From contig NZ_JAJAVG010000004.1 of the NCBI RefSeq assembly GCF_020531915.1, positions 682,001 through 746,000 of the forward strand: a stretch of 64,000 nt of DNA, in the 5' to 3' direction. The translations under genes and the position numbers were made by a program. Positions 51,806-63,112 of this stretch are shown one piece after another. Under the pieces are notes generated by a model. The model searched no databases. It had not been told where the DNA came from and saw nothing but the letters and a program-made list of their open reading frames with translations. This DNA comes from Methylovorus mays. Lineage in GTDB: Bacteria; Pseudomonadota; Gammaproteobacteria; Burkholderiales; Methylophilaceae. How positions within the stretch are numbered: position 1 is the stretch's first letter; each line of letters begins with the position of its first letter.

Positions 51806-51900
51806 GACATGTCCAAGACATGGAAGACAAATGACGGACTGAGACATAAGAAGAGTTCTAAAGGGAGCTGTTTAGATCAGGAAATACTTGATTAGAATCA

Positions 51901-51963
51901 TGGTGCCCGGAGCCGGGGTCGAACCGGCACACCATTACTGGCGAGAGATTTTAAGTCTCTTGT
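51901..51963 (-). other. 3' fragment of tRNA-Leu(TAA): island left attachment site
   Basis: The minus strand carries the 3' part of a tRNA-Leu: the anticodon arm GAGACTTAAAATCTC (anticodon TAA), a variable arm, the T arm TGCCGGTTCGACCCCGGC and acceptor end CTCCGGGCACCA. The sequence then departs from a tRNA before the D arm, so the 5' half is missing. This is how an integration at a tRNA 3' end looks on the side opposite the restored gene. The integrase starts 71 bases further on. The intact tRNA-Leu should lie at the island's right end, beyond the window. Confidence 0.88.
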
Positions 51964-52033: not shown

Positions 52034-53083
52034 ATGGCCACGATCCGAAAACGTGTTAATGAAAATTTTGTTAGCTACGAAGTCCAAGTAAGAAAAAGAG
52101 GCCAACCAAGGCAAACAAAGACATTCAGAAATCGTGCCGATGCTGAGAAATGGGGGCGGATGATTGAAGCTGAAATGGATCGAGGCGTGTTTGTTGACCG
52201 TAGCGAGGCAGAAAGCACTACCTTAGCTGATGCATTAAATCGCTATCTTCGAGAAGTTACTCCATCCAAGAAGAGTGCCACAAGAGAAGCGTCCAGGATC
52301 AAAAAATGGCTGCAGGATCCACTCGCGAAAAGGATGCTTTCCACAATTAAAGGTAAAGATATTGCTGAGTTTCGTGACAGCCAAAGACAAAAACTTCTAG
52401 CTGAAAATACAATTCGCCTTGATATTGCCTTGCTTTCAGTAGTCTTTGAAACCGCTCGAAAAGAATGGGGTATCGAAAGTCTAATCAACCCATGTCAACT
52501 TATAAAACTTCCTAGCAGCTCAAATACGCGTGAGCGTCGTCTAGAACCCAAAGAAGAAATATATCTGCTAAAAGGTCTCGATGCTCATTGCAGAAACAAA
52601 CAAATAAAATCTGTCGTTAGATTTGCGTTGGAAACGGCGATGCGTCAATCAGAAATTTTAAGACTTGAGTGGAGTGATATTAATATCCAAAAAAGCACGG
52701 CGAGGGCTCGAGATACGAAGAATGGGGATGATCGCTTTATACCTCTGTCTTCAAAAGCTATTGCACTCTTAGCAGAGCAGCCAAGAAGCATATATGGAGG
52801 GAAGATATTCAACGTCAGCCAAGACGCCTTAATAAGGGCGTTTCAACGAGGCTGTGAAAAAGGAGCACATCTTTATATTCAAGATCATCCAAACCTCCCC
52901 ACAAATGAATTTTTAAAGAATCTTCGCTTTCATGATCTTAGGCACGAAGCGACTAGTCGACTATTCGAGCTTGGAACACTAGATGTAATGGAAGTAGCAT
53001 CGATTACAGGCCATAAAGCACTGCAGATGCTTAAAAGGTATACTCATCTAAAAGCAGAGAATATTGCCAAGAAATTAGCCTAA
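52034..53083 (+). CDS. int: Tyrosine-type site-specific integrase
   Basis: A 349-residue phage/island integrase. An N-terminal arm-binding-like domain (VSYEVQVRKRGQPRQTKTFR) and a core-binding domain precede the catalytic domain: the first Arg in ALETAMRQSEILRLEW, a Lys region around DTKNGDDRFIPLS, H-x-x-R in FHDLRHEATSRLFELG, a His in ITGHKALQM and the nucleophile Tyr in LKRYTHLK. All catalytic residues are present. It is codon-AT-rich and points away from the tRNA-Leu fragment, which is its probable attachment site. Confidence 0.95.
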   Translation: MATIRKRVNENFVSYEVQVRKRGQPRQTKTFRNRADAEKWGRMIEAEMDRGVFVDRSEAESTTLADALNRYLREVTPSKKSATREASRIKKWLQDPLAKRMLSTIKGKDIAEFRDSQRQKLLAENTIRLDIALLSVVFETARKEWGIESLINPCQLIKLPSSSNTRERRLEPKEEIYLLKGLDAHCRNKQIKSVVRFALETAMRQSEILRLEWSDINIQKSTARARDTKNGDDRFIPLSSKAIALLAEQPRSIYGGKIFNVSQDALIRAFQRGCEKGAHLYIQDHPNLPTNEFLKNLRFHDLRHEATSRLFELGTLDVMEVASITGHKALQMLKRYTHLKAENIAKKLA

Positions 53084-53157: not shown

Positions 53158-54105
53158 TTATAATTCAATTGTATATGTCCACAGCCTTTTTATTCCTTCA
53201 CTCGTTTCACGCGTATAACCTGTACACTCAGGCAATATTAAGCTCACAGCGCCACGTTGCTTTCCCTCTAAAAACCAATATAGAGCGAAACCCATTGCTT
53301 GCACTTTTGTTGATAAAGGTGATATGTAAATATTCGCATTAGAAAATTTACGATCGATTTCGGATACAACACTCTTCAACGCTTGAGCAGTGGAAAAAGG
53401 ATCGTTGGCTGGCGCAAATTTTCGATTAGTGATCCATTCACCCGAGATAGCAGCGTCCCCACCTAAAGATGCAGCGATTGCACTTTGCTGATACATATCA
53501 GGGCTCAATGAGGGAAAAGCAAATAAAGGATAGACAACCGAATTATCTTTATGAGTAGTAACCTCATTTATCAACTTGCTATCGTACCCAACGCCGATAA
53601 TCAAAAAGTCGCGGCTTTGAGAATGATTACTTCCGGCCATACCTCTCACTGGACGCACATTACCAGAAGTTGAGTTAGTGAATGTTGTATTTTCTTGCTT
53701 CTTATAAAATAAAGGTTCTGAATAGAGTGCAGTAAACTCCTTCAACCCAGCGTATGCCAACATTGGTATCATGAAACATAAGGTATGTCGCATGAATCCA
53801 GTAATATCAATGTAAACTTTTTTATTATGCAACATCCCAACCTCGTCTAATAGAGCTCTAAGCTGAAGCGCCTCATCGAGTTCATTAGGAGCGACAATGG
53901 GATATCCAGTAGGATACTCCAACGGTTTGTATGCATATTCTGGTTGTATAAACCAGAACTTCTGTTTTGCTTGAACTTCCTCAAATATCTTCTGCACCCG
54001 ATCACTTGAGTTAAACGCTGAAATAAAAATATCGCATTCCTCAAGCTCTTTATTAATCCTATCTGTATTGATAGGGCGCCGATAATAAATTGAATAGTCA
54101 ATCAT
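53158..54105 (-). CDS. Unknown Rossmann-like protein, fourth gene of island operon
   Basis: A 315-residue protein with no recognised family. It is soluble and alternates short hydrophobic strands and helices. Stretches that look conserved in kind are CDIFISAFNSSDRVQKIFEE (25-44), FWFIQPEYAY (50-59), KVYIDITGFMRHTLCFMIPM (96-115), FTALYSEPLFY (124-134), FLIIGVGYDSKLI (167-179), and IYISPLSTKVQAMGFALYWF (239-258). The D-x-T-G-x-x-R after a strand and the G-V-G-Y-D-S motif could be ligand loops of a Rossmannoid sensor or enzyme. Its ATG overlaps the ATPase stop by four bases, so it acts with the ATPase. Function unknown. Confidence 0.7.
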   Translation of the reverse strand: MIDYSIYYRRPINTDRINKELEECDIFISAFNSSDRVQKIFEEVQAKQKFWFIQPEYAYKPLEYPTGYPIVAPNELDEALQLRALLDEVGMLHNKKVYIDITGFMRHTLCFMIPMLAYAGLKEFTALYSEPLFYKKQENTTFTNSTSGNVRPVRGMAGSNHSQSRDFLIIGVGYDSKLINEVTTHKDNSVVYPLFAFPSLSPDMYQQSAIAASLGGDAAISGEWITNRKFAPANDPFSTAQALKSVVSEIDRKFSNANIYISPLSTKVQAMGFALYWFLEGKQRGAVSLILPECTGYTRETSEGIKRLWTYTIEL

Positions 54106-56102
54106 AGATCAAACAGCTCATCCTGATGCTCAACTTGGCCGAATTTTTTCCTAAACGGGTTATTCCATTTCGAATGAAGTTGCTTAAGCGAATGGTCGAA
54201 TGCCTCTTTCTCATTAGGATCAAAAATGGCATTCACCAATATTGAACTTAAACCTAAGTCACCTCTACGACTTATCGGAAGCCTCCATCTAGGAGAAAGC
54301 ATAGGATTAAGTTGAAATTTACGATTAACTTGTTGGCTGTTTCTATCTGGCCTTCCACCGTGAATCTCAAACAATAGTGAATAATTTAAACAAATCTTAA
54401 GTGTAGTTCGAGAAACTGGAGATAGATCATTTTCAGAGAATGAAACAGCTAAAGGAGAAACCTCTGGAATATTTAGTGCATATCGGGCAGTTCTTAATAA
54501 GCTTGCCAAGCGATCTATTGCAATCCTTGCCATATCAGAGTCAATACCTAAATTGGTATCAATTTCAAACATAAACTTTGCCGCCTCGAAAGCCGCCTCA
54601 GTCTGAAGCTCTATTGACAATTTTGGTCCGCGCAGAAAATCGATGTCCCTGAATGAGGCTATAGAATATGCCTTACCAAGAATTAATAATAAATTTCTTG
54701 GATTCCCAGATGACATTTTTATATATGTATCTAAGCCAGCATATGGGCAATTAATTTCTTTAGGAGACTCTCTGCAAAGCTGCGCATAAAGATCAGATGA
54801 GTAATGGTTATATGCGGTACTATAACTACTCACATCCTCACCTTTTATAAAATCTAAAGAAGATTTATTGATTTCATTTGCCAGATCAATAGATGAGTTT
54901 TTTTTCTTGTATTTTTTGCAAAAAATCAAAATATTTAATTTTTGGATAAGCAATGAAAAACCTGATGTTAATTTTCCATATATAAAATCAACGTCTTCCT
55001 GCGCCTCCACAGATCTTAACGAGTCTTTAAAGTATTTAAATGTTGTAGGAATCTTATCTTCAAATCTTAAATCTGTTATAGCATTGACATAATTATTAGT
55101 ATTATCGATTTCCTCAAAAAATAAACTCGGATTAGCTAGCTTTCTCTCGAACTCAGAGTCAACGATTCCAATTGAGTGCAACCTCTTCCGTATAAAATTT
55201 TTAGCAAACTCAGGAAATTTATCAAGATTTCTTAGAATATCGTCTAGAACAATAGTTTTGTACTCCGACCCCTCTCTGTTTTCTTCCCCGGCGCCCATAG
55301 TTTTTGTCGTCTTTAAACCATAGAGCCGCCCTGTAACACGAAAAGTGGCATTACTCTCTCCATACCTTATCAGTGTATTAAGAACCTCTTGCTGTTGTTC
55401 ATTAAGATTTTCTATTTCGTCAATTAAATATATAAGTGGCACATCTTTAAAAATTGGGTGCCATGCATGAAGAGCTCTACTGACTGGAATACATATTGAT
55501 CCGATTGAGAATGGTATATGGACATCAACCTTTCCCGAAAACGCTGCATTATTAACCGCCTCATCAATTTTTTTTCTTTCATTCAAAACCCAGTCGTGAA
55601 ATCCCTCTACCGAAACTACATCATTAAATGACTGATCAGTTATCGATTCATTAATTACTCTGATGAAGGCCAAATCATCAAAACCAACTGAAGAACTAGT
55701 ACGCTTAATATCGCACAGGCTATGTAATAATGCTTCTATGAGTTTTAATTCAAAGTAAATCCCAAACAACTGCTGACTTCCCTTCAAGAAATCACCCGCC
55801 ATTACAAATCGGGATGCATCTACACCAGTTGCTCGCAGAAATACTGCTAGGAATTTTTCCTCACTTAATATACTAAGTCCTGTTGAATTTGGCTTTCTTA
55901 ACCTTATCACTGGATAGGAAAAATAACGTAAAAGATGCGTCTTTCCAGTTCCTTTCCCGCCCAATATAAACTTTGATGACTTGGCCTGTGGCTCAATTAT
56001 TGCGTTTATAGTTGATAAGCCTATCTCAACCCAGAGCGAATTAATCTGCTCATCCGTGTAGTCGGAAGCTTTAACTAGAGCAAATGGGTTTGTATATTCC
56101 AT
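54102..56102 (-). CDS. ORC/CDC6-like AAA+ ATPase
   Basis: A 666-residue cytoplasmic ATPase. It opens NPFALVKASDYTDEQINSLW, then Walker A GGKGTGKTH (48-56), Walker B PLIYLIDEIENL (222-233) followed by a conserved Leu/Asn/Gln helix, and sensor-1-like NATFRVTGRLYG (251-262). The region after about 300 is long and mostly helical, with a region like a winged helix near 560-660. I recall such proteins as the ORC-CDC6 family in predicted conflict systems, but a profile search should confirm. It would sense or load onto DNA, or control the partner effectors. The start lies four bases after the PRTase-like stop. Confidence 0.78.
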   Translation of the reverse strand: MEYTNPFALVKASDYTDEQINSLWVEIGLSTINAIIEPQAKSSKFILGGKGTGKTHLLRYFSYPVIRLRKPNSTGLSILSEEKFLAVFLRATGVDASRFVMAGDFLKGSQQLFGIYFELKLIEALLHSLCDIKRTSSSVGFDDLAFIRVINESITDQSFNDVVSVEGFHDWVLNERKKIDEAVNNAAFSGKVDVHIPFSIGSICIPVSRALHAWHPIFKDVPLIYLIDEIENLNEQQQEVLNTLIRYGESNATFRVTGRLYGLKTTKTMGAGEENREGSEYKTIVLDDILRNLDKFPEFAKNFIRKRLHSIGIVDSEFERKLANPSLFFEEIDNTNNYVNAITDLRFEDKIPTTFKYFKDSLRSVEAQEDVDFIYGKLTSGFSLLIQKLNILIFCKKYKKKNSSIDLANEINKSSLDFIKGEDVSSYSTAYNHYSSDLYAQLCRESPKEINCPYAGLDTYIKMSSGNPRNLLLILGKAYSIASFRDIDFLRGPKLSIELQTEAAFEAAKFMFEIDTNLGIDSDMARIAIDRLASLLRTARYALNIPEVSPLAVSFSENDLSPVSRTTLKICLNYSLLFEIHGGRPDRNSQQVNRKFQLNPMLSPRWRLPISRRGDLGLSSILVNAIFDPNEKEAFDHSLKQLHSKWNNPFRKKFGQVEHQDELFDL

Positions 56103-56106
56103 ATTA

Positions 56107-57060
56107 TCAATATTTCTTTTCGAATCTGACGCATACTGGGTTCCAAGGAGTCACATGCCCCTCTGCCCATAGAACTGGAAGAGTATTATCCGGAGTATTG
56201 TGAGAGAACCCTAATAACAATTGATTACTTCTATGCCCAAGGGGTGATCTTGGATAAATTTTCCTTCCATAGGAAGAACATATTTGTTCAAGTTCATTTT
56301 GGTTGAACCAGGATGGCGAGTGTTTAAAATACCTTGAGTCATTCCCAAAAGCTTTATATGTTGAGTCTAATTCAAAAAGGCAAGAGACTCTTTCTCCAAA
56401 CATATCGGTATCCGAAAGTTTGCTAAACCCTTTACTAGTAGAGAATAATGACATAAATCTTAATTCTAATTTTTTATTCGATTTACGAATTTGTGCGAGT
56501 GTCGTTTTTAGGTAAAGTTCAACCTGATCTCCTGAACCTACTAGGTCATCAAAAAAAACATACCGCGTTATGCTTTGATCCCTTGCCACCATTTCTATTT
56601 CGTTACTAATCGGATTAAGAACAGGAGTAAATGCTGCGCCAATATCTACAAACAAACTCTTTGATAAATAATTTACTTGTCGAAAAAAATAGAGAAGATG
56701 GGCTCCACTTTCTGCGGGGTTACCCACTCCAACAAATCTTGTTGTTGCCAATTCTTTTTCAAATAATCCATTTAGTAGTTGAATATCTTTTGTATCTTTG
56801 TTATTTCTTCGAATCCGCTGAATCAAAGGGGAGCGAAAGTGGTCTTCATATAAAACGCGTAACATTTCTCTAATAAGGCGTTTACTGAAGTACATAAATC
56901 GAGTCAGCATAAATAAGGCATACAGCTGCTCCTCATCCTGTGCAAAAACATCGCCAGTGAAATTGTTAGCCCAAGCATTCATATCATGCCACCGGATCTC
57001 CTCATCCCATGCATGGGTTGCTAAGACCAGTAGTTTATTTTCTATATCACTTCTATTCAT
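56107..57060 (-). CDS. Phosphoribosyltransferase-like protein (PRTase-CE type)
   Basis: A 317-residue soluble protein. The motif YVFFDDLVGSGDQ (167-179) matches the PRPP loop of type I phosphoribosyltransferases (two hydrophobics, two acidics, then V-x-S/T-G). Upstream is a VGVGNPAESGAHLLYFFRQV loop (110-129), and the C-terminal LLLGFSHNTPDNTLPVLWAE (281-300) is a conserved-looking element. The family as I recall it, PRTase-CE, is associated with ORC/CDC6-like ATPases in predicted defence operons. Enzyme activity is unproven; it might modify a nucleotide or a base. Its ATG overlaps the methyltransferase stop by four bases. Confidence 0.75.
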   Translation of the reverse strand: MNRSDIENKLLVLATHAWDEEIRWHDMNAWANNFTGDVFAQDEEQLYALFMLTRFMYFSKRLIREMLRVLYEDHFRSPLIQRIRRNNKDTKDIQLLNGLFEKELATTRFVGVGNPAESGAHLLYFFRQVNYLSKSLFVDIGAAFTPVLNPISNEIEMVARDQSITRYVFFDDLVGSGDQVELYLKTTLAQIRKSNKKLELRFMSLFSTSKGFSKLSDTDMFGERVSCLFELDSTYKAFGNDSRYFKHSPSWFNQNELEQICSSYGRKIYPRSPLGHRSNQLLLGFSHNTPDNTLPVLWAEGHVTPWNPVCVRFEKKY

Positions 57061-58472
57061 CTTGTTTCTACTTTAGAGAATACAAGAATAGTTTCCTTGG
57101 AAATTATTGACGCAGTCTTATTCCTTTTTGTCATGAGGCCTCTCGAATGGATTCCGTCAACAAGTGAAAGCTCCAACCTAAACCCAATTTCATTTAACAC
57201 ATCAATAACAAAATGATCATTTCTTACGACTCGCCCACTCACACTATTATTTCCTAGAACTAGCACAATATGACCACCAGGTGCGGTCACTCTTGCTATT
57301 TCATAAAGTGCATCACTCATCTCACAAAAGTAAGTTTTTGTAATAGCGGCTCTCTCTGAATTCACTTCAGATATTTCTTCTACTAATCTTTGATATTTCA
57401 CCGGAATTATTCGGTTAATTTCATTCCATTTAGTATAAATATGCTCTCTTCCTATCGACTTTCTATCTAGAATAGCCAGATCACTGACTGACGCCAGACC
57501 TAACCAATTTAGAGATAGACTAGTAGAACGAATGTATTTTTGAGCACTCCCATATGGCGGGGATGTAATAGTTAAAAAGATCGAATTATCCGCAAGAGAT
57601 GTATTCTCAATTTCCTTCCCAAATCCTTTCAAATTCCTCGCGTCCTCTCCAACATTCCTCACTTCAACTCTGTCGGGAAACAAATGATTAGTAATTTCTA
57701 CTCTATATATATTTTGCTCACATATTTTATAAAACTCATCCGTCACATTTGCTATTTCTATCCATTTAATCCGTTCTTTTATTTTATTGTTTACATCTAC
57801 AGAAAATGCGCTCTTTTCCTTCAACCTTACCGGGACTGAGATTGCAGGATCCGCATTACTAAATTTTCTAGCTAAAATTGAGAAGCATACATTGAAGAAA
57901 TCCTTATCCTCAATCGAATCCAACTCCTGAATAGCTCTAAATATTAACTCCAGCCGCTTCTTTCTTTGCGGGGAGTACCATAATTCAGAATTAACAATAT
58001 CTATTTTAGGAGCAACCCTATATCTTTTTGCCTTATTAATAATCTTTATAGTTACGGCACGCAAATGAGTAGGATCATATGGATATGTTTTGACCTTAGT
58101 AATTAATCGTGCAAGAGGATTTGCGTCAGCCACGCATGGAATTTTTCCAGCCAACGAAGCCTCAAGAGCAACCGTACCGGATCCGCAAAAAGGATCGAGA
58201 ATGATCTCTCCTGGCTTAGACAAACATGACGCATTCGCGAAAAAATGTACTATATGGGGTAAAAGTTTGGCAGGGTAAGGATGTATCTGATGCGTTAACT
58301 GATCACCTGGCTTAACCCAGCTTGCCAGAGCTCTAAAACTAACGTTGAGCTCCTGGCCGGTCTTTGCATACTCCCTCTTCAATTCCTCATACAGTAATGA
58401 GGTGTCAACTCTCCCGCTATTATGTCCGCCCAAAGGACTGCCACTAGCTGATACTATTTTTAATTTTTTCAT
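57057..58472 (-). CDS. DNA methyltransferase, SPPY-type
   Basis: A 471-residue S-adenosylmethionine-dependent DNA methyltransferase. Motif X-like HQIHPYPAKLLPHIV (61-75) precedes motif I EIILDPFCGSGT (89-100), and the catalytic motif IV is FLTITSPPYGSAQKY (299-313). SPPY is typical of N4-cytosine enzymes, though some N6-adenine ones have it. A long segment of about 200 residues lies between motifs I and IV, large enough for target recognition. A late IVLVLGN strand completes the fold. First gene of the operon; it would mark host DNA as self. AT-rich, unlike the host genes upstream of the island. Confidence 0.88.
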   Translation of the reverse strand: MKKLKIVSASGSPLGGHNSGRVDTSLLYEELKREYAKTGQELNVSFRALASWVKPGDQLTHQIHPYPAKLLPHIVHFFANASCLSKPGEIILDPFCGSGTVALEASLAGKIPCVADANPLARLITKVKTYPYDPTHLRAVTIKIINKAKRYRVAPKIDIVNSELWYSPQRKKRLELIFRAIQELDSIEDKDFFNVCFSILARKFSNADPAISVPVRLKEKSAFSVDVNNKIKERIKWIEIANVTDEFYKICEQNIYRVEITNHLFPDRVEVRNVGEDARNLKGFGKEIENTSLADNSIFLTITSPPYGSAQKYIRSTSLSLNWLGLASVSDLAILDRKSIGREHIYTKWNEINRIIPVKYQRLVEEISEVNSERAAITKTYFCEMSDALYEIARVTAPGGHIVLVLGNNSVSGRVVRNDHFVIDVLNEIGFRLELSLVDGIHSRGLMTKRNKTASIISKETILVFSKVETR

Positions 58473-59413: not shown

Positions 59414-59451
59414 GGGGTCGTCTCAGAAAACGGAAAATAAAGCACGCTAAG
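59414..59451. repeat. Terminal inverted repeat of the Tn3-family transposon
   Basis: 38 bases starting GGGGTCGTCTCAGAAAACGG and ending with the ACGCTAAG motif shared by Tn21-subgroup ends. It includes the tnpA stop codon. Confidence 0.9.
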
Positions 59452-62413
59452 CCGGATGCAGTGGTCGCAGCGGCCGGAACTTGCCTGCGCCGATCTTGGC
59501 GCTGCTGCGCCAGAGGTAATCGCCGGTCAGGTTGATGTGCTCCCAGCCGAGCGGCGACAGGTATTTCAACAGGCCGTCATCGACCGCTTGACCGTGGCCG
59601 CGTAGTGCGTTCGCTGCCCGTTCCAGATAGACCGTGTTCCACAGCACGATGGCGGCCGTCACCAGGTTGAGGCCGCTGGCTCGGTAGCGCTGCTGCTCGA
59701 AGCTGCGGTCGCGGATTTCACCCAGGCGGTTGAAGAACACGGCGCGGGCCAGCGCGTTGCGGGCCTCGCCCTTGTTCAGCCCGGCATGCACACGGCGGCG
59801 CAGCTCGACGCTTTGCAGCCAGTCCAGGATGAACAGCGTGCGCTCGATACGCCCCAGCTCGCGCAGGGCCACGGCCAGGCCGTTCTGTCGCGGGTAGCTG
59901 CCGAGTTTGCGCAGCATCAGCGAGGCCGTAACCGTGCCTTGCTTGATCGAGGTGGCCAGCCGCAGAATCTCGTCCCAATGGGCGCGGACGTGCTTGATGT
60001 TGAGCGTGCCGCCGATCATCGGTTTGAGCGCGTCATAGGCGGCATTGCCCTTCGGGATGTAGAGCTTGGTGTCGCCCAGGTCGCGGATGCGCGGCGCGAA
60101 GCGGAAGCCCAAGAGGTGCATCAGTGCGAAGACGTGATCGGTGAAGCCCGCCGTGTCGGTGTAGTGTTCCTCGATCCGCAGGTCGGATTCGTGGTACAGC
60201 AACCCGTCGAGCACGTAGGTCGAATCGCGCACGCCGACGTTGACCACCTTGGTGTGGAACGGCGCGTACTGGTCGGAGATGTGGGTGTAGAACGTCCGCC
60301 CTGGGCTGCTGCCGTATTTCGGGTTGATGTGGCCGGTGCTTTCGGCCTTGCTGCCGGTTCGGAAGTTCTGGCCGTCCGACGATGACGTGGTGCCGTCGCC
60401 CCAGTGCTCGGCGAAGGGATGCCGGAACTGGGCGTTGACCAGTTCGGCCAGCGCCGTCGAATAGGTTTCGTCGCGGGTATGCCAGGCTTGCAGCCAAGCG
60501 AGTTTGGCGTAGGTCGTTCCGGGGCAGGACTCGGCCATCTTGGTCAGGCCGAGGTTGATCGCGTCGGCCAGGATCGTGGTCAGCAACAGATTCTTGTCCT
60601 TGGCCAGATCGGCCGATTTCAAGTGTGTGAAGTGGCGGGTGAAGCCCGTCCACTCATCGACTTCGAGCAGCAGTTCGGTGATCTTGACGTGCGGCAGGAT
60701 CATGGCCGTTTGGTCGATCAACGCCTGCGCGGTGTCGGGCACCGCTGCATCCAGCGGCGTGATCTTCAAGCCCGACTCCGTGATGATGGCGTCGGGCAGC
60801 TCGTTGGCCGTCGCCATGCGGTTGACGGTGGCGAGCTGCGTTTCCAGCAGCATCAGCCGGTCATGCAGGTACCGGTCGCAGTCGGTGGCCACGGCCAGCG
60901 GCAATTCGCTGGCCTGCTTGAGGCTGGCGAATTTCGCGGTCGGCATCAGGTAGTCCTCGAAGTCCTTGAACTGGCGCGAGCCTTGCACCCAGATGTCACC
61001 GGAGCGCAGCGCATTCTTCATCTCCGACAGCGCGCACAGCTCGTAGTAGCGCCGGTCGATGCCGGCGTCGGTCATCACCAGCTTCTGCCAACGTGGCTTG
61101 ATGAAGTCGGTCGGCGCGTCGGCAGGCACCTTGCGGGCGTTGTCGCTGTTCATGTTGCGCAGCACCTCGATGGCATCGAGCACGTTCTTGGCGGCAGGCG
61201 CGGCCCGTAGCTTGAGTACAGCGAGGAATTCCGGCGCGTAACGGTGCAGCGTGGCGTAGCTTTCGCCGATGCGGTGCAGGAAATCGAAGTCCTCAGGTTG
61301 CGCGAGCTTCTGGGCTTCGGTGACGCTCTCGGCGAAGGCATCCCAGGACATGACGGCCTCAATGGCGGCGAACGGATCGCGCCCCGCCTGCTTGGCCTCG
61401 ATCAGCACCTGGCCGATGCGCCCGAACAGGCGCACCTTGGCGTTGATCGCCTTGCCGGACGCCTGGAATTGCTGCTGATGCTTGTTCTTCGCGGCGTTGA
61501 ACAACTTGCCCAGGATGCGGTCGTGCAGGTCGATGATTTCGTCGGTGACGGTGGCCATGCCTTCGATGGCCAGCGCCACCAGGGTGGCATAGCGTCGCTG
61601 GGCCTCGAACTTGGCCAGGTCGGCGGGCGTCATCTGGCCGCCCTCGCGGGCGATCTTGAGCAGCCGGTTCTGGTGTACCGACCGCTCGATGCCGGAAGGC
61701 AGGTCGAGCGCCTGCCACGCCTTGAGGCGTTCGATGTGTTCCAGCATGTGCCGCGAGTTCGGTTTGACGGGCGACTGGCGCAGCCAGGCCAGCCAAGTCG
61801 TCTTGCCGTTGTCGCGGCGCTTAAGCAAATCGTCGAGGCGATGCCGGTGCACGTTCGACAACGGCCCGGACATGGCTTCGTAAATGCGTCGGTTGGCGCG
61901 GGTGATCGCCTCGGCACAGACCCGCTCGATGGCGTTGAGCGCGGGCAGAATGATCGACAGCCGCCGCAGATGCTCGATCAAGGCGCTTGCGAGCACAATG
62001 CCCTTGTCGGTCTGCATGGCCAGCTCGGTCAGCGTGTGGACGGCCTGCCGGTAGTGGCTCATGGTGAAGGGCTGGAAGCTGAACACCGTTTGCAGTTCGA
62101 CCAGGTGCTCGCGCCGGGTCTGCTCCCGCTGTCCGTACTCGCCCCAACTTTCGATATTGACCTTGATTTGGTCGGCGACCAGCTTCAACAAGGGCGGAAA
62201 CGGTGGCTCATCGACGCCAAGGATGACACCAGGAAAACGCAGGTAGCAGAGCTGCACGGCGAAGCCCAGCCGGTTGGCCGGGCCGCGCCGCTGCCGGATG
62301 ATGGACAGGTCGCTTTCGCTGAACGCGTAGTGACGGATCAAGTCATCCTTGGTATCCGGCAACGCCAACAGGCTTTCCCGCTCGGCGGCGGACAGGATGG
62401 AACGACGCGGCAT
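59447..62413 (-). CDS. tnpA: Tn3-family transposase TnpA (Tn21 subgroup)
   Basis: The full-length 988-residue DDE transposase that joins transposon ends to target in replicative transposition. The N-terminus ([20 protein letters not shown]) and the blocks [63 protein letters not shown] and [16 protein letters not shown] are very close to TnpA of Tn21 and Tn501 as I remember them. The DDE region is within the C-terminal 300 residues ([40 protein letters not shown]). It begins two bases after the tnpR stop, and its own stop lies inside the terminal repeat. Confidence 0.97.
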
Positions 62414-62415
62414 CT

Positions 62416-62976
62416 CTATTGATCCAATCTCAAGTACTGATACAGGGTCTCCCGGCTGACACCAAACTCGCGGGCCAACTTCGCTTTTTGTTCGCCGCCG
62501 GCGACACGCTGCCGCAGATCGGCTACCTGTTCGGGCGACAGCGCTTTCTTGCGGCCCCGATAGGCTCCACGCTGCTTGGCGAGCGCGATGCCTTCCCTCT
62601 GACGCTCGCGGATCAAAGCCCGCTCGAACTCGGCGAACGCGCCCATGACGGACAGCATCAGGTTCGCCATCGGCGAATCCTCGCCAGTGAAGGCCAGGCT
62701 CTCCTTGACGAACTCAATGCGCACGCCGCGCTTGGTCAGCTTTTGCACCAGGCGGCGCAAGTCATCGAGGTTGCGCGCCAAGCGATCCATGCTGTGAACC
62801 ACCACGGTGTCGCCTTCGCGCACGAAGGCGAGCAGTCTTTCCAGCTCCGGACGCTGGGTGTCCTTGCCCGACGCCTTGTCGGAAAACACCTTGCCGACTT
62901 CGACGTGTTCGAGTTGCCTTTCCGGGTTCTGGTCAAAGCTGCTGACCCGGACATAGCCAATGCGTTGACCTTGCAA
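62416..62976 (-). CDS. tnpR: Tn3-family serine resolvase TnpR
   Basis: A 186-residue site-specific recombinase that resolves cointegrates. I choose the TTG at 62976: a GGGAGG site lies four bases before it, and the product ([20 protein letters not shown]) then aligns residue for residue with Tn21 TnpR. Catalytic Ser12 is in YVRVSSFDQ; also visible are [18 protein letters not shown] and the C-terminal helix-turn-helix [19 protein letters not shown] more distal ATG at 63048 would add 24 residues that overlap res. Non-ATG initiation here is worth noting. Confidence 0.94.
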
Positions 62977-62984
62977 GATGCCTC

Positions 62985-63112
62985 CCAAGACGAGAATGTC
63001 AGGAAGAAATCTATGACCTTTTGCGGCATGTGTCAATAAATAACACACTGGACTCTATACTGACGTTTCAAGGCGGGCCGCCCTGACATCAGGTTAGGGT
63101 ATAGATCAGGTT
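62985..63112. other. res recombination site and tnpA/tnpR promoter region
   Basis: About 130 bases upstream of tnpR. It contains TGTCA-bearing repeats (in TGTCAATAAATAACACA and CTGACATCAGGTTAGGGTAT) in the positions of the three resolvase sub-sites of Tn21-type elements; the outer one matches the known CCTAACCTGATGTCAG part as I recall it. Sub-site limits are approximate. Confidence 0.7.

What the first reader, a model, noticed from the sequence alone, without database searches (positions are those of the whole stretch)
56107..57060. PRPP-loop protein as possible effector
YVFFDDLVGSGDQ resembles the PRPP-binding motif of phosphoribosyltransferases, but the protein lacks a nucleobase-specific signature I can name. 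Translational coupling with the methyltransferase is unusual for a metabolic enzyme.
Basis: partly seen in the sequence, partly recalled or inferred. Interest (0 to 1): 0.6.

Follow-up and report, generated by a model that had tools for sequence, protein, structure and literature searches.

The report
PRTase effector in four-gene defence operon
The gene encodes a phosphoribosyltransferase-fold enzyme that nearly always travels with a DNA methyltransferase, an ORC/CDC6-like ATPase and a nucleotide-sensor (CARF) protein in what looks like a mobile anti-phage system, and relatives of the operon repeatedly pick up a spare thymidylate-making gene, a new clue to what this little-understood class of immune enzyme acts on.

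Summary
ORF 56107-57060(-) has YVFFDDLVGSGDQ, D171/D172, and a 4-nt ATGA overlap with the upstream methyltransferase. It belongs to a named family, Pfam PRTase-CE (E 2.7e-59), homologous to retron III-A PRTases. The AlphaFold model (pLDDT 94) matches type I PRTases in PDB, and both Asp are invariant in 77/77 homologues. No salvage-enzyme family matches.

It is gene 2 of a coupled four-gene operon: N4/N6 DNA methyltransferase, PRTase-CE, ORC-CDC6-like AAA+ ATPase, stand-alone tandem-CARF (CARF6) protein. 72 of 77 related loci keep this order, across several phyla. Here it is cargo of a ~22.6-kb tRNA-Leu island.

Possibly new: relatives repeatedly carry an adjacent thymidylate enzyme (ThyX, ThyA or dUTPase), usually an extra one. 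ThyX is present in 9/9 operon-bearing Rhizobiales genomes versus 3/198 in the order. No cyclase accompanies the CARF protein.

Best reading: an anti-phage system in which PRTase-CE is a portable, catalytically competent effector acting on nucleotides, controlled by ATPase and CARF sensor, with methylation marking self. Fold, operon and thymidylate link are shown by computation; defence role, substrate and wiring are inferred. The families are catalogued; I found no experiment on this system in the library searched.

The parts
57057..58472 (-). Gene 1: N6_N4-type DNA methyltransferase, 471 aa, motifs DPFCGSG (93-99) and SPPY (304-307)
   Evidence: Pfam N6_N4_Mtase 1.1e-11; S304 P305 P306 Y307 invariant in 73 sequences
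56107..57060 (-). Gene 2: PRTase-CE, 317 aa, the finding
   Evidence: Pfam PF24390 2.7e-59; AlphaFold model pLDDT 94.3; PDB matches are PRTases
56524..56565 (-). PRPP-loop codons, residues 166-179 with D171/D172
   Evidence: D171/D172 in 77/77 homologues; end of strand 166-174 before helix 178-194 in the model
56698..56730 (-). Second invariant loop, residues 111-121 (GVGNPAESGAH); probable pyrophosphate loop (inference)
   Evidence: G113, P115, S118, G119, H121 in 77/77; follows strand 107-111
57057..57060 (-). ATGA overlap of MTase stop and PRTase start
   Evidence: sequence
54102..56102 (-). Gene 3: ORC-CDC6-like AAA+ ATPase, 666 aa
   Evidence: Pfam PF24389 6.7e-123; Walker A and B conserved in 71 sequences
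53158..54105 (-). Gene 4: stand-alone tandem-CARF protein (CARF6), 315 aa; starts 4 nt inside the ATPase stop
   Evidence: PADLOC CARF6 8.5e-131; model pLDDT 94.6; VIA-align Z 13.4 to Csm6, Z 12.6 to Can1 over residues 23-298
52034..53083 (+). Tyrosine integrase of the island that carries the operon
   Evidence: Pfam Phage_integrase 6.1e-24
51900..51963 (.). One end of the island: 64-bp exact copy of the 3' part of tRNA-Leu(TAA); the other copy lies beyond the window at L084:10508-10571

Best explanation
The operon is a mobile anti-phage (anti-mobile-element) system. Gene 1 methylates host DNA as a self mark. Gene 3, an ORC/CDC6-like AAA+ ATPase, binds DNA and switches with ATP when it meets unmarked or replicating invader DNA. 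Gene 4, a tandem-CARF nucleotide sensor without an output domain, gates the complex by reading a nucleotide. Gene 2, PRTase-CE, is the catalytic output: with PRPP or a related ribose diphosphate it makes or breaks an N-glycosidic bond on a base or nucleotide and so disturbs nucleotide metabolism, stopping phage replication. The recurrent extra ThyX, ThyA or dUTPase genes suggest that the pool under strain is dUMP/dTMP, the spare enzyme keeping host dTTP up or dUTP down. Shown by computation: the PRTase fold and intact PRPP loop, the conserved four-gene unit, the CARF fold, conserved catalytic motifs, the mobile island, the thymidylate link. Inferred: defence function, effector role, order of events, substrate.
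For: PRTase family, fold and invariant PRPP loop. MTase-PRTase-ATPase-CARF in this order in 72 of 77 loci across phyla; three of the other five are cut by a contig end. Catalytic motifs of MTase and ATPase conserved; distances of PRTase, ATPase and CARF correlate at 0.83-0.86. CARF fold confirmed. PRTase-CE recurs beside retron RTs, beside a DUF1156 MTase plus NADAR, and in other CARF6/ORC operons, as a portable effector would. PRTases are reported as probable effectors in retrons and in a DprA-PRTase pair shown to protect against phage (PMC9122126; PMC12548924). The operon lies in a tRNA island here; integrases, HipA, GmrSD and restriction genes occur among neighbours elsewhere (no control set). 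Thymidylate link: ThyX beside the operon in all 15 Rhizobiales loci; in the nine of these genomes searched whole it is the only ThyX and all nine have ThyA as well; 3/198 in the order otherwise; extra ThyA in three Bacteroidota and dUTPase in four loci, an extra copy in three; about ten label changes on the tree.
Against: No experiment on this unit was found. The window's own operon has no thymidylate gene (ThyA is elsewhere in the genome, no ThyX), so the link rests on relatives, 50 of 69 of which also lack one. A spare dTMP enzyme would help the phage too. No source of a CARF ligand was identified. The structural superposition on known PRTases is partial (TM about 0.25 by query length).
Confidence: 0.5

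Rival explanations
1. PRTase-CE is the signal maker, not the killer: it builds a modified nucleotide that the tandem-CARF protein senses, and the ATPase delivers the output.
For: A CARF sensor with no cyclase in the operon; Csm1-type Cas10 over cut-off in 0/35 operon genomes and SMODS in 2/35. CARF6 and PRTase-CE occur together in all CARF6 loci seen here.
Against: PRTase-CE works without a CARF partner in retron III-A loci. No nuclease or other output domain was recognised in the ATPase.
Confidence: 0.2
2. The methyltransferase and the ATPase do the work (a restriction-like or replication-blocking system), and the PRTase domain is a catalytically idle ligand-binding or regulatory subunit, as in PyrR-like PRTase-fold regulators.
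For: PRTase-fold regulators exist: PyrR is among the structural matches. The residue after the PRPP-loop G is variable.
Against: D171/D172 and the second loop are invariant in 77/77; PRTase-CE recurs in systems with unrelated sensors.
Confidence: 0.2
3. The accessory thymidylate genes point to the trigger rather than the target: the system senses dUTP or uracil-containing (or otherwise modified) DNA, and the extra ThyX, ThyA or dUTPase lowers false alarms in the host.
For: dUTPase, ThyA and ThyX share one net effect, less dUTP and more dTMP (enzyme knowledge; gene evidence).
Against: No uracil-recognition domain was recognised in the four proteins.
Confidence: 0.15
4. An ordinary nucleobase-salvage PRTase that sits by chance next to a methyltransferase.
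For: Fold and PRPP loop only.
Against: No match to a salvage family in Pfam or NCBIfam; own curated family; four-gene linkage in 72 of 77 loci.
Confidence: 0.03

Closest known systems
Pfam PRTase-CE (PF24390) with ORC-CDC6-like (PF24389) and PADLOC CARF6
   Same: The three profiles match genes 2, 3 and 4 strongly; the neighbouring Pfam accessions suggest that the two families were described together (inference)
   Different: I could not read a paper that describes the combined unit; the likely sources are not held. PADLOC-DB 2023 matched only single proteins
Type III-A retron PRTase (PADLOC PRTase_III-A)
   Same: Homologous PRTase over most of its length (3.2e-31); probable effector
   Different: Retrons use an RT and ncRNA as sensor; here the partners are MTase, ORC-like ATPase and CARF, with no RT in the unit
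DprA-PRTase anti-phage pair (PMC9122126)
   Same: A DNA-binding partner proposed to control a PRTase effector
   Different: Two genes, DprA in place of ATPase, CARF and MTase; relation of its PRTase to PRTase-CE not tested
CARF-based type III CRISPR and SAVED-based CBASS receptors
   Same: Tandem CARF fold like Can1 and SAVED receptors such as Cap5
   Different: No fused effector; no Cas10 or CD-NTase in the operon
BREX and DUF499/DUF1156 BREX-related systems (PMC12839542)
   Same: MTase plus ORC-Cdc6-like AAA+ ATPase logic; PRTase-CE occurs beside a DUF1156 MTase in L106 and L107
   Different: No BrxC/DUF499 ATPase, helicase or PglZ in the four-gene unit

Membership tests
PRTase-CE (Pfam PF24390) | Profile match over the curated cut-off along the whole domain | tested here: met
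   201.5 bits against 27, profile positions 2-253 of 253
Type I phosphoribosyltransferase superfamily | PRTase fold | tested here: met
   Model pLDDT 94.3; listed matches are PRTase-superfamily chains, best Z 9.4
Type I phosphoribosyltransferase superfamily | PRPP loop with an acidic pair | tested here: met
   D171/D172 in 77/77 homologues
Type I phosphoribosyltransferase superfamily | PRPP-dependent transfer activity | not testable with these tools
   needs enzymology
Nucleobase-salvage PRTases | Match to a salvage family profile | tested here: not met
   Pfam finds only PRTase-CE, NCBIfam only a weak anti-phage PRTase match
Type III-A retron | PRTase homologous to PRTase_III-A | tested here: met
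   3.2e-31
Type III-A retron | Retron reverse transcriptase in the unit | tested here: not met
   No RT among the four genes; the conserved unit in 72 loci has none
CARF6 / CARF superfamily (gene 4) | Profile match and CARF fold | tested here: met
   PADLOC CARF6 8.5e-131; Z 13.4 to Csm6, Z 12.6 to Can1
CARF6 / CARF superfamily (gene 4) | Binding of a cyclic oligonucleotide | not testable with these tools
   needs ligand assay
CRISPR type III / CBASS signalling | Cyclase (Cas10 or CD-NTase) in the operon | tested here: not met
   None among the four genes; Csm1 over cut-off in 0/35 and SMODS in 2/35 genomes
Anti-phage defence system | Mobile or defence-gene setting | tested here: met
   tRNA-Leu island with integrase; integrase, HipA, GmrSD and restriction genes among neighbours elsewhere, without a control set
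Anti-phage defence system | Reduces phage infection | not testable with these tools
   needs phage challenge

The most novel reading that the evidence does not exclude
PRTase-CE is the core of a nucleotide-pool immune system centred on thymidylate: the enzyme attacks or diverts pyrimidine deoxynucleotides (or makes a ribosylated nucleotide that the stand-alone tandem-CARF protein reads), and independently recruited ThyX, ThyA and dUTPase copies are built-in self-protection.
Probability: 0.2. Interest if true: 0.8.

Novelty: new variant of a known kind. Interest (0 to 1): 0.55.

Why it matters
The papers I could read describe PRTase effectors in retrons and with DprA as of unknown action. This analysis ties the same enzyme family to a conserved four-gene unit with a CARF sensor but no cyclase, and to thymidylate metabolism through three non-homologous accessory enzymes. 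That gives a short list of candidate substrates (PRPP, dUMP/dTMP/dUTP pools) that one metabolomics experiment could test.

Tried and rejected
Salvage enzyme: rejected. A CRISPR III-A link suggested by the name PRTase_III-A: rejected; the name refers to retron type III-A. Cyclic oligonucleotides from Cas10 or a CD-NTase as the CARF ligand: not supported by co-occurrence; PF22335 proved uninformative because weak matches, probably GGDEF proteins, swamp it. Foldseek's first matches for the CARF protein were KaiC chains with TM near 0.2 and rmsd near 20 A; discarded in favour of VIA-align. Thymidylate genes as mere insertion-site neighbours: unlikely for ThyX, for ThyA in L055/L056/L060 and for dUTPase in L040/L050/L069, where another enzyme or copy exists; kept open for L025 (sole dUTPase); ThyA in L017 and L030 not counted (3.1 and 2.4 kb away). 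Sequence search of PDB gave no relative for PRTase or CARF and only weak hits for the ATPase. Paper searches for PRTase-CE, PF24390 and CARF6 found no paper on them; two papers I expected to describe the unit are not held.

Full report
Observation. The ORF at 56107-57060 (-) encodes 317 aa with YVFFDDLVGSGDQ and D171/D172 as stated. The methyltransferase stop and the PRTase start overlap as ATGA at 57057-57060. The unit goes on: the ATPase gene 54102-56102 starts 4 nt after the PRTase stop, and the fourth gene 53158-54105 overlaps the ATPase stop by 4 nt.

Identity of the proteins. PRTase: Pfam PRTase-CE, 201.5 bits against a cut-off of 27; PADLOC PRTase_III-A, the retron type III-A PRTase, 3.2e-31. 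Third gene: Pfam ORC-CDC6-like, 6.7e-123. Fourth gene: PADLOC CARF6, 8.5e-131. First gene: N6_N4 DNA methylase.

Fold. An AlphaFold2 model from 64 sequences has mean pLDDT 94.3 and pTM 0.88. Foldseek finds 51 PDB chains at E <= 0.001; those listed are purine, uracil and orotate PRTases, PyrR and similar entries. VIA-align gives a best Z of 9.4, and the rows are PRTase-superfamily chains. The superposition is partial (TM about 0.25 by query length); the protein has an N-terminal helical part that known PRTases cover poorly. D171 and D172 lie near the end of strand 166-174, just before helix 178-194, where the PRPP loop of type I PRTases sits (established knowledge of the fold). A second invariant loop, GNPxESGxH (113-121), follows strand 107-111; I read it as the pyrophosphate loop (inference). 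The residue after GSG is T, S, D, Q or E and the next is Q or T, so the window's D178 is within family variation.

The four-gene unit. From a genome scan, a viral-contig scan and plasmids I assembled 77 loci. In 72 of them MTase, PRTase, ATPase and CARF lie in this order on one strand. Of the other five, L027, L050 and L068 run into the end of their contig, L061 lacks a recognisable MTase and L079 is a fragment. The loci come from Pseudomonadota, Bacteroidota, Actinomycetota, Nitrospirota, Acidobacteriota, Bacillota and several candidate-phylum MAGs, one of them labelled Heimdallarchaeota. Pairwise distances of PRTase, ATPase and CARF correlate at 0.83-0.86, those with MTase at 0.63-0.65, which suggests a PRTase-ATPase-CARF core and a more exchangeable MTase. 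Catalytic motifs are kept throughout: MTase DPF and SPPY, ATPase Walker A and B, PRTase D171/D172.

The CARF protein. Its model (pLDDT 94.6) holds two CARF-like halves. VIA-align gives Csm6 Z 13.4 for the C-terminal half and Can1 (6sce) Z 12.6 over residues 23-298; SAVED receptors such as Cap5 follow. No output domain is recognised. No cyclase lies in the operon; Csm1-type Cas10 is not found over its cut-off in 35 operon genomes, and SMODS appears in two. The ligand is therefore open.

Thymidylate link. In all 15 Rhizobiales loci a ThyX gene lies beside the operon, mostly overlapping or abutting the MTase start, sometimes downstream on the other strand. In the nine such genomes that were searched whole it is the only ThyX, and all nine also have ThyA. 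In an even sample of the order only 3 of 198 other genomes have ThyX; Fisher p 1.4e-13, not corrected for shared ancestry. Three Bacteroidota loci have ThyA immediately upstream in genomes with two ThyA genes, while the other operon genomes of that kind searched have one or none. Four loci have an adjacent dUTPase; in three of these genomes there is at least one more. On the PRTase tree the accessory labels need about ten changes, so recruitment or loss happened repeatedly. dUTPase, ThyA and ThyX share one net effect, less dUTP and more dTMP. The window's own operon has no such gene.

Other homes of PRTase-CE. A Pfam-profile search of 398 genomes of one phylum (that of L011, Pseudomonadota) found it in 18. 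One is L011's own genome, a member of the present type. Of the other 17, nine sit beside a gene that looks like a retron RT (one, L111, confirmed as RT_III-A; the rest judged from their sequence), two beside a NADAR protein and a DUF1156-type methyltransferase, four in ORC/CARF-like operons with SIS/HAD and PfkB-like proteins (NADAR confirmed in two), one (L109) in an ORC-CARF6 trio without MTase but next to a dUTPase and an HD phosphohydrolase, and one (L108) near an OLD-like ATPase gene. NADAR domains are ribosyl N-glycosidases (PMC9503650), so a PRTase with a NADAR partner again points to ribosylation of a base. A module that keeps its catalytic residues while changing sensors is best read as an effector (inference).

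Setting in this genome. The operon is cargo of a ~22.6-kb island bounded by exact 64-bp repeats of tRNA-Leu(TAA), with the integrase beside one end, which also holds a Tn3 transposase and resolvase and genes that look like mobilisation genes.

Verdict. The family is known and named. I found no experiment on this four-gene unit in the papers I could search, but papers likely to describe it are not held. What seems new is the repeated recruitment of thymidylate enzymes and the absence of a cyclase for the CARF sensor. Effector function, substrate and trigger remain inferences.

Noticed in passing
window 51900-51963 and L084:10508-10571: Exact 64-bp direct repeats of the 3' part of tRNA-Leu(TAA) bound a ~22.6-kb island; the intact tRNA is at L084:10509-10595 and the integrase at 52034-53083.
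   Followed up: yes
window 59447-63048: Tn3-family transposase and resolvase inside the same island, next to the operon.
   Followed up: partly
L114, L118, L119, L120: A second PRTase-CE operon type: SIS/HAD protein, PRTase, ORC-like ATPase, CARF6-like protein and a PfkB kinase, with NADAR in L114 and L120.
   Followed up: partly
L106, L107: PRTase-CE followed by a NADAR protein and a DUF1156 methyltransferase, as in BREX-related systems.
   Followed up: partly
L109:3945-9615: PRTase-ATPase-CARF6 trio without a methyltransferase, next to a dUTPase and an HD phosphohydrolase.
   Followed up: partly
L007:10295-10588, and L062 and L063 downstream of the CARF gene: A small conserved gene of about 100 aa on the opposite strand, between the CARF and ThyX genes.
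   Followed up: no
G000:C6:794826-795104: Weak SMODS (CD-NTase) match about 49 kb beyond the window's end; not known to relate to the CARF protein.
   Followed up: no
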